From the NCBI GenBank assembly GCA_002699025.1, contig PABA01000044.1, positions 1 through 41,339 on the forward strand: a DNA stretch of 41,339 nucleotides, written 5' to 3'. Under the pieces are notes generated by a model that saw nothing but the letters and a program-made list of their open reading frames with translations, was not told where the DNA came from and ran no database searches. The position numbers and the translations under genes were made by a program. Below are positions 5,826 through 13,844 of the stretch, in pieces. Every line of letters begins with the position of its first letter. The first letter of the stretch is position 1. The stretch is from Sandaracinus sp. GTDB taxonomy: Bacteria > Myxococcota_A > Polyangia > Polyangiales > Houyiibacteriaceae.

Positions 5826-5869
5826 GCGGGCCCGCTTCCTTCAGGGAGCGGGCCTGCACTTTTTCTTTT
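5826..5869 (+). terminator. Rho-independent terminator of the VWA gene
   Basis: The stem GGCCCGCTTCC / GGGAGCGGGCC (one G-T pair) with a TTCA loop at 5829-5854 is followed by a T-rich run at 5860-5869. It starts about 75 bases after the VWA stop codon and abuts the 130-bp repeats. Confidence 0.85.
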
Positions 5870-6100
5870 GGCTTACCAGCGGGCCCGTGGGGCCCTCGGC
5901 GCCGCGTGGCCGCGGCGTCACAGGGGTCGGTTCTTCGAGTGGAAGGCGGTGCGGCTCCGTGGGGCCGGGCGTCTTCCGCTCGCTGCGCTCGCTATCTTTG
6001 GCTTACCAGCGGGCCCGTGGGGCCCTCGGCGCCGCGTGGCCGCGGCGTCACATGGGTCGGTTCTTCGTCGGTAGGCGAACGCGGCTCCGTGGGGCCGGGC
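5868..6100 (+). repeat. 130-bp tandem repeat, right array (inverted relative to the left array)
   Basis: Two copies start at about 5868 and 5998, again with a period of exactly 130 bases. They are the reverse complement of the copies at 9 and 139. The shared core runs from TTGGCTTACCAGC to GGTCGGTTCTTCG, and the linker between cores is also conserved. The pairs face each other across argA, argE, two hypothetical genes and the VWA gene. Confidence 0.9.
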
Positions 6101-6560
6101 TACGGGGCAGAGGTGGGGGCGCTCCCCCGACCGAGCCGGGGTGGCGACGGGGGGACGGTTGCGCTGCGCTGCGGAAGGGGGGTCGCTCGGCAACCTCGTT
6201 CGGCGGCGCTTCGGGGTGAGGCGGCGGCGGCTTCACGGGCCCGTGGGGCCGGGCTACGGGGCAGATGTTGGGGGGCGCTCCCCTTTGCAGACGGGTGGCT
6301 TCGCCGCTGTCGTGGCCGGAGCGCTCCTCGGCGGCGACGCGACTTCGCCGCTCTCGCGGGCGGTGCGCTCCCGTTCGCAGTCGGGTGGCTTCGCCGCTGT
6401 AGCGGCCGGTGCGCTCCTCGGCAGCGACGCGACTTCGCGGCTGTCGCGGCCCGTGCGCTCCTCGGTAGCGATCGCGGTTCGGGGCGTCTCGGCGCTTGCT
6501 CGACGCGACGCGAGCGCGGCTCCGGGGGGAGCGTCCCGATGGCGTGCGCCGCGGGTGGGC
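6101..6560. repeat. Gene-free spacer with a 90-bp imperfect tandem repeat
   Basis: No convincing gene. The phrase CCGTGGGGCCGGGCTACGGG occurs twice (about 6091 and 6242). From 6291 to about 6470 two 90-base units, each starting CGGGTGGCTTCGCCGCTGT, follow one another; inside each unit the words GTGCGCTCC and GCGACGCGACTTCGC recur, suggesting nested duplication. The open frames here are GC-rich shadows. Confidence 0.7.
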
Positions 6561-6893
6561 TCAGCTGCCGCGGTAGGTGCTGTAGCCGAAGGGGCTGAGC
6601 AGGAGGGGGATGTGGTAGTGGGCGGCGGCGTCTTTCACGCGGAAGACCACGGCGGCCTCGGGGTAGAAGGCGTCGGGGCCGAGGTAGGCCTCGGTGGCGA
6701 AGGTGAGCCGGTGGACGTCGGCGGCGAGCGCTTCGCCCGCCGGCAGCAGATCCTTCACGCGGCCGTCGGCGTCGGTCACGGCCTCCTCGAGGAGGCGCCA
6801 GCCGCCGCCCTGCTCGCGGCGCTCGAGCTTCACCGGGATGCCCTCGGCCGGGGTGCCGCGGGAGAGGTCGAGGACGTGCGTGCTGATGCCCAT
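6561..6893 (-). CDS. hiuH: 5-hydroxyisourate hydrolase (transthyretin-related)
   Basis: Hydrolyses 5-hydroxyisourate, the unstable product of urate oxidation, to OHCU. The 110-residue protein has the standard family length and both hallmark ends: the N-terminal HVLDLSRGTPA and the C-terminal tetrapeptide YRGS. Catalytic His residues are expected in HVLD and in HYHIPLLLSPFGYSTYRGS; the conserved Arg may be R49 or R62. It is the last gene of the minus-strand purine operon, separated from uraD by 185 bases of repeats, so it may need its own promoter or be read through. PucM is the Bacillus name for this family. Confidence 0.95.
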   Translation of the reverse strand: MGISTHVLDLSRGTPAEGIPVKLERREQGGGWRLLEEAVTDADGRVKDLLPAGEALAADVHRLTFATEAYLGPDAFYPEAAVVFRVKDAAAHYHIPLLLSPFGYSTYRGS

Positions 6894-6918
6894 GGCGGGA
6901 CTCTACCCGGACTCCACC

Positions 6919-6985
6919 CGATGCGTCCGCCCGATGCATCCGCCCGATGCATCCGCCCGATGCATCCGCCCGATGCATCCGCGCC
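6919..6985. repeat. 13-bp minisatellite, five copies
   Basis: Five tandem copies of CGATGCATCCGCC (the first has one mismatch, GCGTCC) with an exact 13-base period. Each contains the palindrome ATGCAT. It lies in the hiuH-uraD gap, just upstream of the hiuH start on the minus strand, where a ribosome-binding or promoter region would be expected. Confidence 0.92.
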
Positions 6986-7004
6986 CACGCGCGAGGTCGG
7001 CTCG

Positions 7005-7060
7005 GGCGCCGAGCTTGCGGAGGCGGAGGCGCGTGATCGGCCTATGCGCCTCGGCGGCTG
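7005..7060 (-). pseudogene. Duplicated 3' end of uraD
   Basis: A 34-base stretch (7005-7038) is identical to 7082-7115, which encodes the last residues of the real uraD (ITRLRLRKLGA). Similarity continues more weakly to about 7060. It is a remnant of a local duplication offset by 77 bases, not a functional gene. Confidence 0.85.
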
Positions 7061-7078
7061 CGGGGAGGGGCCGCGCGC

Positions 7079-7588
7079 TCAGGCGCCGAGCTTGCGGAGG
7101 CGGAGGCGCGTGATCTTCATCTGCTCCTCGGCGGCCACGCGGAGCTCCCGCGAGGGGCGGTTGTCGATGCGCTCGCGCAGGATCGCGAGCATCTCGTCGG
7201 CGCTCTTGCCGGTCGCGCACACGAGGAAGACGTGGTCGAAGCGCGCCTCGTAGGCCTCGTTCTCGTCGGCGAGGGCCTGCAGCGTCGCCTCCGACGCGCC
7301 GCTCACGCCCGCCTGCTCCGTCTCCGACATGGACGCGCTCCGGCCGTGCTTCGCGCGCAGCGCCTCCACGTCGCCGCCGATGCGCGGGTGGGCCGCGAAG
7401 GCCGCCAGCCAGTCGTCCCGGCCGAGGCTCCACCAGATCCGCTCGGCCATGGCCAGCACCGAGGCCTCGTCCGGGAAGGGGCGGGCGGCGACCATGCGCG
7501 TCACCCAGCGCGGGGCCGCGCAGCAGCTCCGGAGCGCCTCGGCGGCCTCGGCCTCCTCCAGCGCGTTCAGGTGCTCGGCCAGGCTCAC
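7079..7588 (-). CDS. uraD: 2-oxo-4-hydroxy-4-carboxy-5-ureidoimidazoline (OHCU) decarboxylase
   Basis: Converts OHCU to (S)-allantoin, the step after hydroxyisourate hydrolase. The 169-residue protein has the family signature AAHPRIGG (His is catalytic in the family), followed by a Glu-Gln in SETEQAG and the long conserved stretch beginning ENEAYEARFDHVFLVCATG with downstream RIDNRPSRE. The start is GTG at 7588, overlapping the allantoinase stop as GTGA, so translation is coupled. The 3' end is duplicated immediately downstream (7005-7060). Confidence 0.95.
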   Translation of the reverse strand: MSLAEHLNALEEAEAAEALRSCCAAPRWVTRMVAARPFPDEASVLAMAERIWWSLGRDDWLAAFAAHPRIGGDVEALRAKHGRSASMSETEQAGVSGASEATLQALADENEAYEARFDHVFLVCATGKSADEMLAILRERIDNRPSRELRVAAEEQMKITRLRLRKLGA

Positions 7589-8925
7589 GTCGCGCCCCCT
7601 TCGAGCATCGCGCCGCGTCGCCGCGGGGCGAGCCCGCTCCGCCGATCGTAGACGCGCTCGCCGCGCAGCCAGGTCGCCTCCACCCGGCCGCGCAGGCGCT
7701 GGCCGGCGTAGGGCGTGACGTCGTGGCGATGCTTCAGCTCGCGCGCGTCCACCTCGATCTCCGCGTCCGGATCGAACACGACCAGGTCCGCGTCGAAGCC
7801 CGGCGCGATGGCGCCCTTGTGCTTCAGCCCGGCGAAGGCGGCGGGGGCGCTGCTCGTCCAGCGCACGACCTCCTCGAAGGGCACGCGCCGCCGCAGCGCG
7901 CCGGTCCACGTCGCCGAGAGGCTGAGCTGCAGCCCCGCGATGCCGCCCCAGGCCTGGGCCACGTCGCCCTCCTCGAGGTGCTTGAGCGCCGGCGCGCAGG
8001 GCGAGTGGTCCGACACCACGAAGTCGATGCGCCCGTCGCGGAGCCCCTCCCAGAGCCCCTCGCGCTGGTCGCGCTCGCGGATGGGCGGCGCGCACTTGAA
8101 GCGCGGGTCTCCGTCGGGGATCTCCTCGGCGGCGAAGGAGAGGTAGTGGGGGCAGGTCTCCACGCTGAGCGGCGCGCCACGGAGCTTGGCGTCGCCGATC
8201 GCGTCGAGCGCGTCCGCGCAGGCGAGGTGCACGACGTGCGTGCGGCACCCGGCCTCCTCGCCGAGGGCGATGAGCAGCTCGATGGCCTCCTGCTCCCAGG
8301 CGCGCGGCCGCGAATCGAGCCAGGCCCGGTAGCTGCGCGGGTCCGGGCTCGTCGGCGGCTCGGAGACGGGGAGCTCGCAGTGGGCCAAGAGGGGCAGGCC
8401 GCGGCGCGCGAGGTGGGGGAGGGCGGCGCGGAGGTCGCCCGCGTCGACGTGGGGGAACTCCTCGACGCCCGAGTCGATCAGGAAGCACTTGAAGCCGAGC
8501 ACGCCCGCGTCGGCGAGGGGCTCGAGGGCCTCGGCGTTGCCGGGGACGACGCCGCCGTAGAAGCCCACGTCGACCTGGAGCTGGCCCGCGGCGGCGGCCC
8601 GCTTGGCCTCGAGGGCGGCCACGTCGGTGGTCGCCGGGATGCAGTTCAGGGGCATGTCCACGAGCGTCGTGATGCCCCCGGCGGCGGCGGCGGCGGTGGC
8701 CGTCGCGAAGCCCTCCCATTCGGTGCGCCCGGGCTCGTTCAGGTGCACGTGCGTGTCCACGGCGCCCGGCACGAGCCAGGCGTCGCCCACGTCCACGAGC
8801 TCCACGCGCTCGATCGGGAGCGCGTGGGGCTCGAGGGCGGTGATGCGGCCGTCCTTCGTGAGGACCGTGGCCGCGCGCGTGCCGTCGGGGGTGACGACGC
8901 GGCGGCTGCGGAAAGCGCGCTCCAC
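7585..8925 (-). CDS. allB: Allantoinase (amidohydrolase superfamily)
   Basis: Hydrolyses allantoin to allantoate. The 446-residue protein shows the amidohydrolase metal motif DTHVHLNEPG (H59, H61), a GFKCFL stretch whose Lys is the expected carboxylated bridge, HCELPV and HLAC histidines, and VSDHSPCAP carrying the catalytic Asp. The WEGF sequence after the first motif is typical of allantoinases as opposed to dihydroorotases. It begins at ATG 8925, seven bases after the flavoprotein gene stops, and overlaps uraD by 4 bases. Confidence 0.94.
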   Translation of the reverse strand: MERAFRSRRVVTPDGTRAATVLTKDGRITALEPHALPIERVELVDVGDAWLVPGAVDTHVHLNEPGRTEWEGFATATAAAAAGGITTLVDMPLNCIPATTDVAALEAKRAAAAGQLQVDVGFYGGVVPGNAEALEPLADAGVLGFKCFLIDSGVEEFPHVDAGDLRAALPHLARRGLPLLAHCELPVSEPPTSPDPRSYRAWLDSRPRAWEQEAIELLIALGEEAGCRTHVVHLACADALDAIGDAKLRGAPLSVETCPHYLSFAAEEIPDGDPRFKCAPPIRERDQREGLWEGLRDGRIDFVVSDHSPCAPALKHLEEGDVAQAWGGIAGLQLSLSATWTGALRRRVPFEEVVRWTSSAPAAFAGLKHKGAIAPGFDADLVVFDPDAEIEVDARELKHRHDVTPYAGQRLRGRVEATWLRGERVYDRRSGLAPRRRGAMLEGGAT

Positions 8926-8932
8926 GGGAGCC

Positions 8933-10423
8933 CTAGAAGTCCTTCTCGTCGTAGGCGGCCAGCGTCTCGAGGTGCGTCGCCGCGTCCTCCAGATAGAGCT
9001 GCTTCGTGATGCCCCCGACGATGCGCCGCACGCTGTACTTCATCCCCGAGATGCTCGCGCCGCCGAGGCCGAGGCTGAGCAGGCAGCCGAAGTTGTAGTT
9101 GAAGAGCCCCTTCAGCCAGGGCGCCGCCTCGGGGTCGCGCGCCGTCATCTCGAAGCTCGGGCCGAGGTAGGGGTGACGGAGCAGCTCGGCGATGGCCTCG
9201 CCCTCGGGCGGCGTGAAGCGGTCGGCCCAGCGCGCGATGTGCTGCTCCACCTCGCTCAGCTCCGGGCGGCTCGCCAGATCCGTGCGGAAGCCCGTGCCGC
9301 AGATCACGTAGTCGTGCTCGAAGACGCCGTGCGGGGTCCGCACCTTCACGACCTCGTCCTCGACCCAGGTCTTCTCCCACGGCGAGCCCGGGTGCATCTG
9401 GAAGGTCTCGTGCTTGGTGGCGCGCTCGAAGGTCGGCGCGGGCGGGAGCTGGCCGGCCGTGAAGAAGCGATGGATGAAACGGTACTTCGTCGCGTCGTCG
9501 AGGTCCCCGTGGTGGTGCAGGAAGCCGACGAACTCGGCCCAGCGGTACACGTTGACGCGGACGAGCTCCTCGCGGCGGAAGTAGAGGTCGACGCTCGCCG
9601 CGCCGTTCTCGAGCGCGACCGAGGCGTTGTCGAAGGCGCTCGCGCCCGCGCCGAGGACGGCCACGCGCTTGCCCTTCAGGGCGTCGAAGTCGATGCGCTC
9701 GTGCGTGTGCGCCCAGCGCGTCTCGGGCAGGCTGCCCTTCACGACCTCGGGCACGAACCACTGCCCCGAGCCCTCGATGCCGGTCGCGAGCACGACCTTC
9801 CGCGCGTGGAGCGTCTCGGCCTTCGTGCCCTCGTCCGTGCGCGTCTCGACCGGCACGTCGAAGCACTGGTCGTCCTCGTTCCAGCGCATGGCGCCGACCC
9901 GCGTCTCGCTCCGCACGGGGATGCCGAGGAAGTCCCGGTACCAGCCGATGTAGCGCGCCCAGGTCTCGCGCGGGACGAAGCCGACCGCCTCCCAGCTCCC
10001 CGGCCCGTGCTGCGCCTCGTACCAGGCGCGGATCGAGAGATCGGGGATGCCCTGGTCGGGCCCGAGCACGTGCTTGGGCGTGCGCAGCGTCTTCATGCGC
10101 GCGAAGCGGAGCCAGGGCCCCTCGCGATCGCGCGGCTGCGCGTCGACCACGAGCACGCGATCGACCTTCTCGCGCATCAGCCCAAAGGCCACGGCCAGGC
10201 CGCCCTGCCCACCGCCGACGATCAGCGCGTTCAGGATCGGCTCCCCGCTCCGCGTCGTCCGCGGCGGCACCCAGGGGCGCGCCGGGTAGTCGAGGATGTC
10301 GAGGTCGCGGCGGAGCTTCGCCTCGAGGGCCCCGAGGCCTCGCGGGATCAGGTCGAGGCGCTTCGGAGGCGCGGCCTCGGTCTCGGTGTCCGCGGGGTCG
10401 AGCTGTACGGCGGCGTCAGCCAT
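8933..10423 (-). CDS. FAD/NAD(P)-binding monooxygenase-like protein in the purine operon
   Basis: A 496-residue flavoprotein. An FAD-binding Rossmann motif VGGGQGG is at residues 69-75, and a second dinucleotide motif LGAGASA lies near residue 265, preceded by a degenerate form of the flavin-monooxygenase fingerprint (PE..KG....WAHTHER). A third motif, YVICGTGFRTD, is the usual late FAD contact. This is a class B flavin monooxygenase/lysine-hydroxylase-like layout, not the class A fold of the urate hydroxylase HpxO. It overlaps the ureidoglycolate amidohydrolase gene by 8 bases and precedes allantoinase by 7, so it belongs to the operon. The substrate is unknown; urate or another purine is an inference from context. 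Confidence 0.85.
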   Translation of the reverse strand: MADAAVQLDPADTETEAAPPKRLDLIPRGLGALEAKLRRDLDILDYPARPWVPPRTTRSGEPILNALIVGGGQGGLAVAFGLMREKVDRVLVVDAQPRDREGPWLRFARMKTLRTPKHVLGPDQGIPDLSIRAWYEAQHGPGSWEAVGFVPRETWARYIGWYRDFLGIPVRSETRVGAMRWNEDDQCFDVPVETRTDEGTKAETLHARKVVLATGIEGSGQWFVPEVVKGSLPETRWAHTHERIDFDALKGKRVAVLGAGASAFDNASVALENGAASVDLYFRREELVRVNVYRWAEFVGFLHHHGDLDDATKYRFIHRFFTAGQLPPAPTFERATKHETFQMHPGSPWEKTWVEDEVVKVRTPHGVFEHDYVICGTGFRTDLASRPELSEVEQHIARWADRFTPPEGEAIAELLRHPYLGPSFEMTARDPEAAPWLKGLFNYNFGCLLSLGLGGASISGMKYSVRRIVGGITKQLYLEDAATHLETLAAYDEKDF

Positions 10424-11720
10424 CTCGGGTGTCTCCCTCCCGGGCGCTCGGCGGGTTCTCCGCGAGGGCCCACATGGTCTCGGCGAGCACGGCGGCGCCC
10501 TGGGCGATCTCCTCCGGGGCCGTGTACTCGTCGGGTCGGTGGCTCACGCCGTCCTTCGACGGGACGAAGATCATCCCGGTCGGGGCGACGCGCGCCATGA
10601 AGAGCGTGTCGTGGTAGGCGCGGCTCACGAGGCGCTGGCTGGCGAGCTCGTGGGCGGCGGCGGCGGCTTCGACCGCCTCGACGATCCGCGGCGCCGAGAC
10701 GGCGGGCGGGTCGGCGTTGATGGTGCGGACGTCCACGCGGACGCCGCGCTCCCGGCGCACCGCCTCGATGGCGGCCTCGATCTCGGCGAAGGCCCGCTCG
10801 CGGGAGGCGAGCTCCGTGTCGCGGAGATCGATCTCGAGGTGCACGCACGAGGGGATGCTGTTGATCGCGCCTGGGTGGACGCGGCAGACGCCGCAGGTGC
10901 CCACCGTGTCCGGGCTGCCGCTCTGCTTGGCGGCGCGCTCGACGGCGAGGGCGATCTCGCAGGCGGCGGCGAAGGCGTCCTTCCGGCGCGGCATCAGCAC
11001 GGCGCCCGCGTGGCCCCCCTCGCCCTCGAGCTCGAGCGCGTAGGAGGCGGGCGCGGCGATGGCGGTGACGGCGCCGATGGGGACGCCGGCGGCCTCGAGG
11101 CGCGGGCCCTGCTCCACGTGGAGCTCGACGAAGGCGGCGTAATGGCCGGGCGCGAGGCGCACCTCCTCGAGGGCCCCCGTGAAGCCCGCGGCCTGGCGCA
11201 CCTCCTCGAAGGAGCGGCCCGCGTCGTCCTCCAGGGCGCGCACGGCGTCGGGGGCGATCGCGCCGGCCATCAGGCGGCTGCCGACGCAGCCGAGGCCGAA
11301 GCGCGTCGGCTCCTCGGAGGTGAAGGCGACGACCTCGAGCGGGCGCGCGGGCACGCGGCCGGCCTCCTTGAGGGCGCGGAGCGCCGCGACGCCGCCGAGC
11401 ACGCCGACCGTTCCGTCGTACTTGCCGGCGTTGGGGATGGCGTCGATGTGCGAGCCCGTGCCGATGGGCGGGAGGCTCGGGTCGGCGCCCTCGAGCCGGT
11501 AGAAGGCGTTGCCGACCGGGTCGACGCGCACGGCGAGGCCGGCCTCCTCGGCGAGGCGGCGCACGTAGGCGCGGCCCGCGAGGTCCTCCTCCGTGTAGAG
11601 CACGCGGGTGACGGCCGGCGCGGGCAGGGCGCTGATGCGCGCGAGGCCCTCGAGCTCGTCCCAGAGGCGCGCGGCGTCGATGGCGATCGGATCGGCCGTG
11701 GCGGAGCGGGGCGCGCTCAT
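10416..11720 (-). CDS. Ureidoglycolate amidohydrolase, plant-type (M20 family)
   Basis: Expected to convert (S)-ureidoglycolate to glyoxylate, two ammonia and CO2, the last step of the ureide route. Of the two M20 hydrolases in the operon, this one matches the plant UAH pattern as I recall it: GSHIDAIPNAGKYDG, FTSEEPTRFG, ELHVEQGP, GGHAGAVLMP, HPGAINSIPS and SRAYHDTLFMAR. Allantoate amidohydrolases instead have GSHLDT, DEEGVRF and GRAGHAGTTPM, as the gene at 12480 does. Start: the ATG at 11720 is preferred because it forms an ATGA overlap with the upstream gene; the longer frame is a shadow. Length 434 residues. Specificity is inferred from motifs and order. Confidence 0.85.
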   Translation of the reverse strand: MSAPRSATADPIAIDAARLWDELEGLARISALPAPAVTRVLYTEEDLAGRAYVRRLAEEAGLAVRVDPVGNAFYRLEGADPSLPPIGTGSHIDAIPNAGKYDGTVGVLGGVAALRALKEAGRVPARPLEVVAFTSEEPTRFGLGCVGSRLMAGAIAPDAVRALEDDAGRSFEEVRQAAGFTGALEEVRLAPGHYAAFVELHVEQGPRLEAAGVPIGAVTAIAAPASYALELEGEGGHAGAVLMPRRKDAFAAACEIALAVERAAKQSGSPDTVGTCGVCRVHPGAINSIPSCVHLEIDLRDTELASRERAFAEIEAAIEAVRRERGVRVDVRTINADPPAVSAPRIVEAVEAAAAAHELASQRLVSRAYHDTLFMARVAPTGMIFVPSKDGVSHRPDEYTAPEEIAQGAAVLAETMWALAENPPSAREGDTRDG

Positions 11721-12466
11721 CGACGGGGCTCCGTCGCCGGGTCGCGCCAGACGTCCTTGTAGTAGAGGTACTTCGCCGGCGTCTTGCCGATGCAGCCGAA
11801 CCACTGGGGCAGGTAGGGCGCCATCCAGATCGCGTCGCCGGCCGTGACCGGGTACCAGCTCTCGCCGAGCCGGTAGACGCCGCCGCCCTCGAGGAAGATC
11901 AGCCCGTGCTCCATCACGTGGCTCTCGACCATCGGGAGCGAGGCGCCCGGCTGGAACGCGAAGCTGTTCATGGCGAGGTCGAAGCCGGGCTCGTCCGGGA
12001 GGAGCGGCCGCAGGATCGCGTCCGGGTCGCCGAGGAAGGGCTGGCCCTCGACGTCCTGCTCGCGGCCGATGACGACCTTCGGCGCGTGCCCGTCGAGGGG
12101 CCGATAGACCTTCTCGAGCAGGAAGAGGCGGGCCGGCGCGGCGGCGCGGAGCACGTGCTCGGCGCCGGGGGGGAAGAAGGCGTAGCCGCCGGGCGCGAGC
12201 GTCGTCGTGGCGTCGGCCTCGAGCGTCACCTCGCCCTCGAGCACGAAGAGGAAGCGCTCGACGCCCTCGCTCGGCGCGCCGCTCGCGGCGCCGGCCTCCA
12301 TGGTCACGAGATGCTGCGTGAAGCCCGCGCCCATGACCGGCGCGATGAGCGTGATGGCCTGGCTCTTCTCCCAGCCGACGAGCGGCGCGGGGACGTGGCT
12401 CTCGGGGGTGATCAGCGCGTGGTCGCGCGCGACGCGCGTGCGGGAGAGGGCGGTGTCGATCTTCAT
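11717..12466 (-). CDS. allE: (S)-ureidoglycine aminohydrolase (bicupin)
   Basis: Releases ammonia from ureidoglycine, the product of allantoate amidohydrolase, giving (S)-ureidoglycolate. A 249-residue two-cupin protein. The C-terminal cupin carries the metal site of the family: E.HVMEH (Glu and two His) followed by GGVYRL, GDAIWM and QWFG (Gln ligand). The N-terminal cupin (LEGEVTLEADATTTLAPGGY) lacks a metal site, as usual in this family. It lies 13 bases after allC and overlaps the next gene by ATGA. In plants and bacteria this enzyme works in series with the two M20 hydrolases found on either side of it here. Confidence 0.92.
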   Translation of the reverse strand: MKIDTALSRTRVARDHALITPESHVPAPLVGWEKSQAITLIAPVMGAGFTQHLVTMEAGAASGAPSEGVERFLFVLEGEVTLEADATTTLAPGGYAFFPPGAEHVLRAAAPARLFLLEKVYRPLDGHAPKVVIGREQDVEGQPFLGDPDAILRPLLPDEPGFDLAMNSFAFQPGASLPMVESHVMEHGLIFLEGGGVYRLGESWYPVTAGDAIWMAPYLPQWFGCIGKTPAKYLYYKDVWRDPATEPRR

Positions 12467-12479
12467 GCGGGCACCTGCA

Positions 12480-13844
12480 TCAGGAGGTGGCCTCGGCGCG
12501 GCCCTCGAAGCGGGCGGCGAGGCGCTGGAGAAAGGCGACGGAGACCTCGAGGGCGACGGCGACGTCGCCGGGGAGGACGCTCTCGTCGGGGTGATGGCTG
12601 AGCCCCTCGGGGCTGCGGAGGAAGAGCATCGCGCTCGGCACCAGCGGCGCGACGATGCGCGCGTCGTGGCCGGCGCCGGAGGGCATCTCGTGGACGGGCT
12701 GCTCGGCGTCGCGGACCGCCTCGACGAGGAGCCCGCGGAGCCCCGAGTCCATGCGCACGGGGGCCTGGTCGAAGTGGAGCTCGGGCTCGAGCTTCAGATC
12801 GCGGCGCCGGGCGATGCTCTCGGCGGCGGCGCGCAGATCGAGGAGCGCGCGCTCGAGCCGGCCGGCGTCGGGGCTGCGCACGTCGACCTCCACGGCCGCG
12901 TGGCCGGCGATCACGTTGTTGCCGCCCGGGCGCGCCTCGATGGCGCCGACCGTCGCGACGAGATCGGGCACGTCCCGGCCGAGGGCCTCGACGGCGAGGG
13001 CGAGCTCCGCGGCGCCTGCGAGCGCGTCCCGGCGGAGGTTCATGGGCGTCGTGCCCGCGTGGCCCGCGCGGCCGGTGAAGTGGAGCGTCTGCCAGCAGTG
13101 GCCGGCGATGGCGGTCACCACGCCGACGGGCAGGCCCTGGCTCTCGAGCACCGGGCCCTGCTCGATGTGCAGCTCCAGGTACCCGAGGGCGCGCTCGGGC
13201 TCGAAGCGCGCTTCGGCGAGGGCCCGGCGCGGCGCCCCGAGCTCCTCCCCCCGGGCGGCGGCGAAGCGCGCCATGGCCTCGTCGAGGCGGACGCCTTCGT
13301 CGTCCTCGAGGGCGAGGTCGGCGCCGGGGAAGGTGCCCGTGAGGGCGCGGCTGCCGAGGAAGGGGCGCGCGAAGCGGACGCCCTCCTCGTCGGCGAAGCC
13401 CACGACCTCGACCGCGTAGGGGAGGGCGAGGCCGAGCTCCTGGACGGCCTCGAGCATGCCGAGCCCGAGGACCACGCCGAGGGGGCCGTCGTACTTGCCG
13501 GCGTCGCGGATCGTGTCGAGGTGCGAGCCGATGTAGAGCGTCGGCGCGTCGGGGGAGGCGGGGGCGGGGAGGCGCCCGCGGAGGTTGCCGATGGCGTCGA
13601 CCCGGACCTCGAGCCCGGCGTCCTCCATCCACGCGCCGAGGCGCGTGTGCGCGTCGCCCATGGCCGGGGTGAGGCAGCGGCGGAGCAGCAGGCCGGGCGC
13701 CTCCGTGCAGGCCGCGAGGGCGTCGCAGCGCTCGAGGGCGCGGGCGGCGTGGTGCTCGGCGCGGGGGCGGGGCAGGGCGAGGGGCCGAGGCGTCGGGGCC
13801 GCGACGCGGGCCGTGGTCCGCTGGCGCATCGAAGGGTCACGCAT
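12480..13844 (-). CDS. allC: Allantoate amidohydrolase (M20 family)
   Basis: First gene of the purine operon; converts allantoate to (S)-ureidoglycine with release of ammonia and CO2. M20 zinc-hydrolase motifs: GSHLDTIRDAGKYDG, ADEEGVRF, ELHIEQGP, GRAGHAGTTPM, EARPGGNNVI, SGAGHDARIV and GLSHHPDE. These follow the allantoate amidohydrolase/carbamoylase pattern. The start is uncertain: ATG at 13844 (454 residues) or ATG at 13829; neither has a strong ribosome site. The frame continues open upstream, but that part does not look like protein. It is divergent from the phosphotransferase gene at 14110. Confidence 0.88.
   Translation of the reverse strand: MRDPSMRQRTTARVAAPTPRPLALPRPRAEHHAARALERCDALAACTEAPGLLLRRCLTPAMGDAHTRLGAWMEDAGLEVRVDAIGNLRGRLPAPASPDAPTLYIGSHLDTIRDAGKYDGPLGVVLGLGMLEAVQELGLALPYAVEVVGFADEEGVRFARPFLGSRALTGTFPGADLALEDDEGVRLDEAMARFAAARGEELGAPRRALAEARFEPERALGYLELHIEQGPVLESQGLPVGVVTAIAGHCWQTLHFTGRAGHAGTTPMNLRRDALAGAAELALAVEALGRDVPDLVATVGAIEARPGGNNVIAGHAAVEVDVRSPDAGRLERALLDLRAAAESIARRRDLKLEPELHFDQAPVRMDSGLRGLLVEAVRDAEQPVHEMPSGAGHDARIVAPLVPSAMLFLRSPEGLSHHPDESVLPGDVAVALEVSVAFLQRLAARFEGRAEATS

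What the first reader, a model, noticed from the sequence alone, without database searches (positions are those of the whole stretch)
8933..10423. Flavin monooxygenase-like gene embedded in the urate operon, where a uricase would be expected
No UOX, PuuD or HpxO-type gene is in the window, yet the operon begins its chemistry at hydroxyisourate. The FMO-like gene overlaps one pathway gene and lies 7 bases from another. It may be a new kind of urate-oxidising enzyme or act on a related purine.
Basis: inference. Interest (0 to 1): 0.68.

Follow-up and report, generated by a model that had tools for sequence, protein, structure and literature searches.

The report
HpyO-type urate hydroxylase in urate operon
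The flavin enzyme sitting in this soil-bacterium operon is almost certainly the missing uric-acid-oxidising step, but it belongs to a family (HpyO) already shown to do this in Xanthomonas, so it extends a known solution to new bacteria and is not a new kind of enzyme.

Summary
Window 8933-10423 (-) encodes a 496-aa FAD/NAD(P)H monooxygenase. It overlaps the upstream pathway gene by 8 bases, lies 7 bases from allB, and sits inside a complete HIU-to-ureidoglycolate operon. The genome has no Uox, PuuD or over-cut-off HpxO.

The functional guess is well supported. Relatives adjoin hiuH/uraD in myxobacteria, Niveispirillum, sphingomonads, a Hyphomonadaceae MAG, a gammaproteobacterium and a Bacillota plasmid. 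Among 33 hiuH+ genomes searched for PuuD, all 9 without this gene have PuuD and none of the 24 with it do.

The novelty guess fails. I located Xanthomonas purine clusters; their only FAD enzyme, between uraD and hiuH, is a full-length homologue (44% identity, E about 1e-136). The predicted structure is class B (PvdA/SidA/FMO fold), unlike HpxO.

Verdict: a myxobacterial member of the HpyO family, carried under generic names (no NCBIfam model fires), alternating with PuuD. Caveats: no assay; the HpyO sequence itself was not in hand; the tree node joining myxobacterial and Xanthomonas forms is weak.

The parts
8933..10423 (-). HpyO-type FAD/NAD(P)H-dependent urate hydroxylase (496 aa); FAD Rossmann motif GGGQGG from about residue 70, NAD(P) Rossmann motif GAGASAFD from about residue 258
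9776..9778 (-). codon of Ile216 in the G-I-[DEQ]-G motif, present in every hiuH/uraD-linked homologue examined and R, Q or A in most unlinked paralogues; candidate specificity marker (inference)
12480..13829 (-). allantoate amidohydrolase (M20 family), first gene of the operon
   Evidence: NF006775 499 bits, cut-off 479
11717..12466 (-). (S)-ureidoglycine aminohydrolase (cupin)
   Evidence: TIGR03214 287 bits, cut-off 200
10416..11804 (-). second M20 hydantoinase/carbamoylase-family amidase, probably ureidoglycolate amidohydrolase (inferred); the likely start is the internal ATG near 11720
   Evidence: TIGR01879 386 bits, cut-off 204; start translation
7585..8925 (-). allantoinase AllB
   Evidence: TIGR03178 569 bits, cut-off 358
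7079..7588 (-). OHCU decarboxylase UraD (GTG start overlaps the allB stop)
   Evidence: TIGR03180 and PF09349 over cut-off; start
6561..6893 (-). 5-hydroxyisourate hydrolase HiuH
   Evidence: TIGR02962 and PF00576 over cut-off

Best explanation
The gene encodes a class B-type flavoprotein monooxygenase of the HpyO family that oxidises urate to 5-hydroxyisourate, using FAD, NAD(P)H and O2 and releasing water rather than H2O2. HiuH and UraD turn the product into allantoin, AllB opens the ring, and the amidohydrolases and the ureidoglycine aminohydrolase finish nitrogen release. Shown here: the operon, the absence of other uricases, homology to the Xanthomonas purine-cluster flavoprotein, the PvdA/SidA/FMO fold, and mutual exclusion with PuuD. 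Inferred: the substrate, the chemistry, NADPH against NADH, and that the Xanthomonas cluster gene is the published HpyO.
For: Own genome: no PF01014, no PF06181, HpxO model never over cut-off. HiuH-positive genomes: PuuD in 9 of 9 without this gene and in 0 of 24 with it; Uox in 0 of 44 searched; both states occur inside families f1 and f3. Homologue adjoining hiuH and/or uraD in myxobacteria, Niveispirillum, Sphingomonas, Novosphingobium, a Hyphomonadaceae MAG, a Priestia plasmid and a gammaproteobacterium. Xanthomonas genomes (94-96% identical to the 1azw iminopeptidase) carry uraD-FMO-hiuH, the FMO being 44% identical to the window protein over 467 aa, E about 1e-136. HpyO: an isofunctional urate oxidase of Xanthomonas, not homologous to HpxO, using FAD and NAD(P)H and releasing water (PMC4562309). 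Fold: PvdA Z 30.3, 376 residues; Foldseek E 1e-19.
Against: No assay. The HpyO paper is not held, so HpyO's identity with the Xanthomonas cluster gene rests on its being the only FAD protein there. The node joining myxobacterial and Xanthomonas forms is weak (bootstrap 37, SH-aLRT 62), and some unlinked paralogues are as similar to the window protein (37-47%) as Xanthomonas is. Niveispirillum falls in another branch with unlinked members. The PuuD exclusion counts related genomes (10 are Corallococcus or close kin). The own genome is a 238-contig draft, 96% complete.
Confidence: 0.91

Rival explanations
1. The myxobacterial gene is a urate hydroxylase that arose separately within the same FMO superfamily, parallel to Xanthomonas HpyO, from a paralogue with another substrate.
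For: The node joining the two groups is weak (37/62) and unlinked paralogue clades lie close by.
Against: In the best tree the two groups already form one side of a branch. They share the GI[DEQ]G motif that most unlinked paralogues lack, and they share operon position.
Confidence: 0.1
2. The flavoprotein acts on a related purine or pathway compound (for example 8-oxoguanine or a methylated urate) and urate oxidation is done by an unknown gene elsewhere.
For: Unlinked paralogues sit in other catabolic clusters, for example next to a gene annotated 8-oxoguanine deaminase in Rhizobium sp. ACO-34A. No activity is known for the window protein itself.
Against: No Uox or PuuD in any of the 24 hiuH+ genomes that carry it; exact replacement of PuuD within families f1 and f3; the same slot in Xanthomonas, where HpyO oxidises urate.
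Confidence: 0.06
3. The gene is a passenger with no role in purine catabolism.
For: None beyond the generic annotation of homologues.
Against: Overlapping and 7-base gene junctions; conserved linkage in several phyla.
Confidence: 0.01

Closest known systems
HpyO, flavoprotein urate hydroxylase of Xanthomonas (Michiel et al. 2012, cited in PMC4562309)
   Same: Same operon slot (between or next to uraD and hiuH), full-length homology to the flavoprotein of Xanthomonas purine clusters (44% over 467 aa), predicted FAD/NAD(P) two-Rossmann monooxygenase, alternative to Uox/PuuD/HpxO.
   Different: Different phylum; downstream genes are AllB plus ureidoglycine aminohydrolase instead of the aminotransferase seen in the Xanthomonas cluster; about 56% of residues differ; not assayed.
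HpxO (Klebsiella FAD-dependent urate hydroxylase, NF033623)
   Same: Same expected reaction and cofactors.
   Different: Reported to be non-homologous to HpyO (PMC4562309); the window protein does not match NF033623 and its model has a class B fold.
PuuD (PF06181 membrane cytochrome c urate oxidase)
   Same: Fills the same slot in relatives of the same families.
   Different: Integral membrane protein with a different mechanism; never found together with the window-type gene in the genomes tested.
Class B N-hydroxylating monooxygenases PvdA/SidA/KtzI
   Same: Same overall fold (PvdA and KtzI Z 29-30 over about 380 residues).
   Different: Only 13-16% identity; different substrates.

Membership tests
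HpyO family of urate hydroxylases | Full-length homology to the flavoprotein of the Xanthomonas purine cluster | tested here: met
   43-45% identity over 467-473 aa, best E about 1e-136; same Pfam pattern PF13738, PF13454, PF07992, PF13434
HpyO family of urate hydroxylases | Homology to the published X. campestris HpyO sequence itself | tested here: inconclusive
   Paper not held; equated with the only FAD enzyme in Xanthomonas uraD/hiuH clusters
HpyO family of urate hydroxylases | Genomic association with hiuH/uraD in genomes lacking other uricases | tested here: met
HpyO family of urate hydroxylases | FAD- and NAD(P)H-binding Rossmann folds of a monooxygenase | tested here: met
   GGGQGG and GAGASAFD motifs; model pLDDT 89.7; PvdA Z 30.3
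HpyO family of urate hydroxylases | Single clade with Xanthomonas sequences in a tree | tested here: inconclusive
   One side of a branch in the best tree but support 37/62
HpyO family of urate hydroxylases | Urate to 5-hydroxyisourate activity with NAD(P)H | not testable with these tools
   needs an enzyme assay
HpxO (NF033623) | NF033623 over its 500-bit cut-off | tested here: not met
   Window protein has no NF033623 match; own-genome hits are weak and elsewhere, best E 2.4e-20
Uox (PF01014) | PF01014 domain | tested here: not met
   None in the protein or genome
PuuD (PF06181) | PF06181 membrane domain | tested here: not met
   None in the protein or genome

The most novel reading that the evidence does not exclude
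The myxobacterial enzyme evolved urate hydroxylation separately from Xanthomonas HpyO within this FMO superfamily, so that it would be a further independent urate-oxidising flavoenzyme lineage with its own active-site solution.
Probability: 0.1. Interest if true: 0.4.

Novelty: new member of a known kind. Interest (0 to 1): 0.27.

Why it matters
It closes an apparent gap in a myxobacterial purine pathway and shows that HpyO, described as occurring in a limited number of bacteria, reaches Myxococcota, Alphaproteobacteria and a Bacillota plasmid and replaces PuuD within families. Homologues carry generic names ('NAD(P)/FAD-dependent oxidoreductase') and no NCBIfam model fires, so an HpyO model with the GI[DEQ]G motif as a filter could repair annotation. 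It also supplies urate-oxidising enzyme candidates that should release water rather than H2O2.

Tried and rejected
(1) Known uricase elsewhere in the genome: searched for Uox, PuuD and HpxO; none. (2) Annotation through NCBIfam: only distant hits (ArsO 39 bits against a 425 cut-off; MSMEG_0569), rejected. (3) Solved relatives by sequence: only weak hits, E 3e-5 at best. (4) First route to Xanthomonas: a proline iminopeptidase sequence recalled from memory proved to match the 1qtr entry (Serratia, from memory); I took the 1azw sequence (Xanthomonas, from memory) from the PDB alignment instead and used it only to recognise the genus. (5) A sample of 369 gammaproteobacteria by UraD gave mostly PuuD loci and one HpyO-type locus. 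(6) Opening the HpyO paper failed. (7) The idea that all homologues of this FMO are urate enzymes was rejected: many clades (Reyranella, Ramlibacter, Bosea and others) have no hiuH/uraD within up to 10 kb and carry R, Q or A at position 216.

Full report
OBSERVATION. The ORF at 8933-10423 (-) is intact, 496 aa. Upstream, the M20 amidohydrolase gene overlaps it by 8 bases; downstream, allB starts after 7 bases. The run of genes on the minus strand, from 13829 to 6561, is allantoate amidohydrolase, (S)-ureidoglycine aminohydrolase, a second M20 amidase (probably ureidoglycolate amidohydrolase, inferred), the flavoprotein, AllB, UraD and HiuH; the named ones are identified by curated models over their cut-offs. 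So every step after urate oxidation down to ureidoglycolate is present and the only redox enzyme in the operon is the flavoprotein.

IS A KNOWN URICASE ELSEWHERE? The window is contig 55 of a 9.24 Mb genome, 96% complete. Uox (PF01014) and PuuD (PF06181) are absent. HpxO (NF033623) gives only weak paralogue hits, none near the 500-bit cut-off.

DISTRIBUTION. Of 57 genomes searched with the protein (the own one and its relatives), strong matches are in the own genome and three others (66-69% identity). A scan of GTDB genomes gave 80 loci. With tblastn and profiles, hiuH and/or uraD lie beside the homologue in nearly all the myxobacterial loci long enough to show it (Corallococcus and others), and in Niveispirillum, Sphingomonas, Novosphingobium, a Hyphomonadaceae MAG and a Priestia plasmid; one gammaproteobacterium was found separately. 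Of 44 genomes searched, none has Uox and 35 have HiuH. Among the hiuH+ genomes then searched for PuuD, all nine without this flavoprotein carry PuuD, and none of the 24 with it do (Fisher p about 3e-8; genomes are related, so the p value is indicative; one count per genus in the relatives set, 0 of 3 against 8 of 8, gives p = 0.006). Both states occur inside families f1 and f3, so replacement has happened more than once or has been followed by loss.

WHAT IT IS. PMC4562309 reviews four urate-oxidising genes: uox, hpxO, puuD and hpyO. HpyO, found in Xanthomonas, is described as isofunctional with but not homologous to HpxO, FAD- and NAD(P)H-dependent, from a family with many paralogues, and as releasing water. 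I located Xanthomonadaceae by a proline iminopeptidase probe, searched that family for UraD, fetched the neighbourhoods and confirmed genus Xanthomonas by 94-96% iminopeptidase identity in seven genomes (that 1azw is from Xanthomonas is from memory). Their purine clusters read allantoate amidohydrolase, aminotransferase-like gene, PuuE-like gene, uraD, flavoprotein, hiuH (the aminotransferase and PuuE labels are read from sequence, without a family scan). The flavoprotein is the only FAD enzyme in the cluster and is 44% identical to the window protein over 467 aa, with the same Pfam pattern. One of the seven (L177) has its homologue split across frames. It follows, with high but not complete certainty, that the window protein is in the HpyO family. 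From memory, InterPro names the PF13454 domain after HpyO and CreE; both proteins match PF13454 over its cut-off.

FOLD AND MECHANISM. The AlphaFold model (pLDDT 89.7) matches ornithine N-hydroxylase PvdA (Z 30.3 over 376 residues, rmsd 2.9) and bacterial FMOs (Z 28-29), a class B two-Rossmann fold, unlike the class A fold of HpxO (from knowledge). Expected mechanism (inferred): NAD(P)H reduces FAD, O2 forms C4a-(hydro)peroxyflavin, urate is hydroxylated at C5, and water is released.

FAMILY STRUCTURE. The wider family has many unlinked clades (Reyranella, Ramlibacter, Bosea and others). In a 58-sequence tree the linked label is strongly clustered (4 changes against 18 for shuffles), but the node uniting myxobacterial and Xanthomonas groups is weak, 37/62. 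Residue 216 is Ile in every linked sequence examined, in a G-I-[DEQ]-G motif, and R, Q or A in most unlinked ones. The unlinked exceptions with Ile include L027 and L044, which sit in linked clades, and L028 and L029, whose genomes have hiuH and uraD together on other contigs and no PuuD or Uox; L009 and L042 are unexplained. The motif was chosen after seeing the data and needs an independent test.

CONCLUSION. An ordinary but correctly spotted case: the uricase slot is filled by an HpyO-type flavoprotein, unannotated as such. New lineage for a known enzyme family.

Noticed in passing
window 7000-7152: 77-bp tandem duplication (2.0 copies, 84%) that repeats the 3' end of uraD just after its stop codon; the extra copy lies between uraD and hiuH.
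   Followed up: partly
window 6913-6982: 13-bp tandem repeat, 5.4 copies at 96%, directly upstream of the hiuH start; could affect hiuH expression or be slippage-prone.
   Followed up: partly
window 5867-6476: Non-coding stretch downstream of hiuH made of several overlapping GC-rich tandem repeats (periods 44, 90 and 130).
   Followed up: no
L177 (G863): In one Xanthomonas genome the HpyO-type ORF is split across frames while uraD and hiuH remain, suggesting a broken urate hydroxylase or an assembly error.
   Followed up: no
L009:3900-14809: Rhizobium sp. ACO-34A plasmid: an unlinked paralogue (50% identity to the window protein, with the GIEG motif) in a cluster with a gene annotated 8-oxoguanine deaminase, a flavin reductase, an amidase and a polysaccharide-deacetylase family gene; perhaps a different purine-like catabolic route.
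   Followed up: partly
L035, L037, L039-L041, L043, L046 and other Reyranella/Enhydrobacter loci: A conserved paralogue clade with GQDG instead of GI[DEQ]G and no hiuH/uraD nearby; substrate unknown.
   Followed up: no
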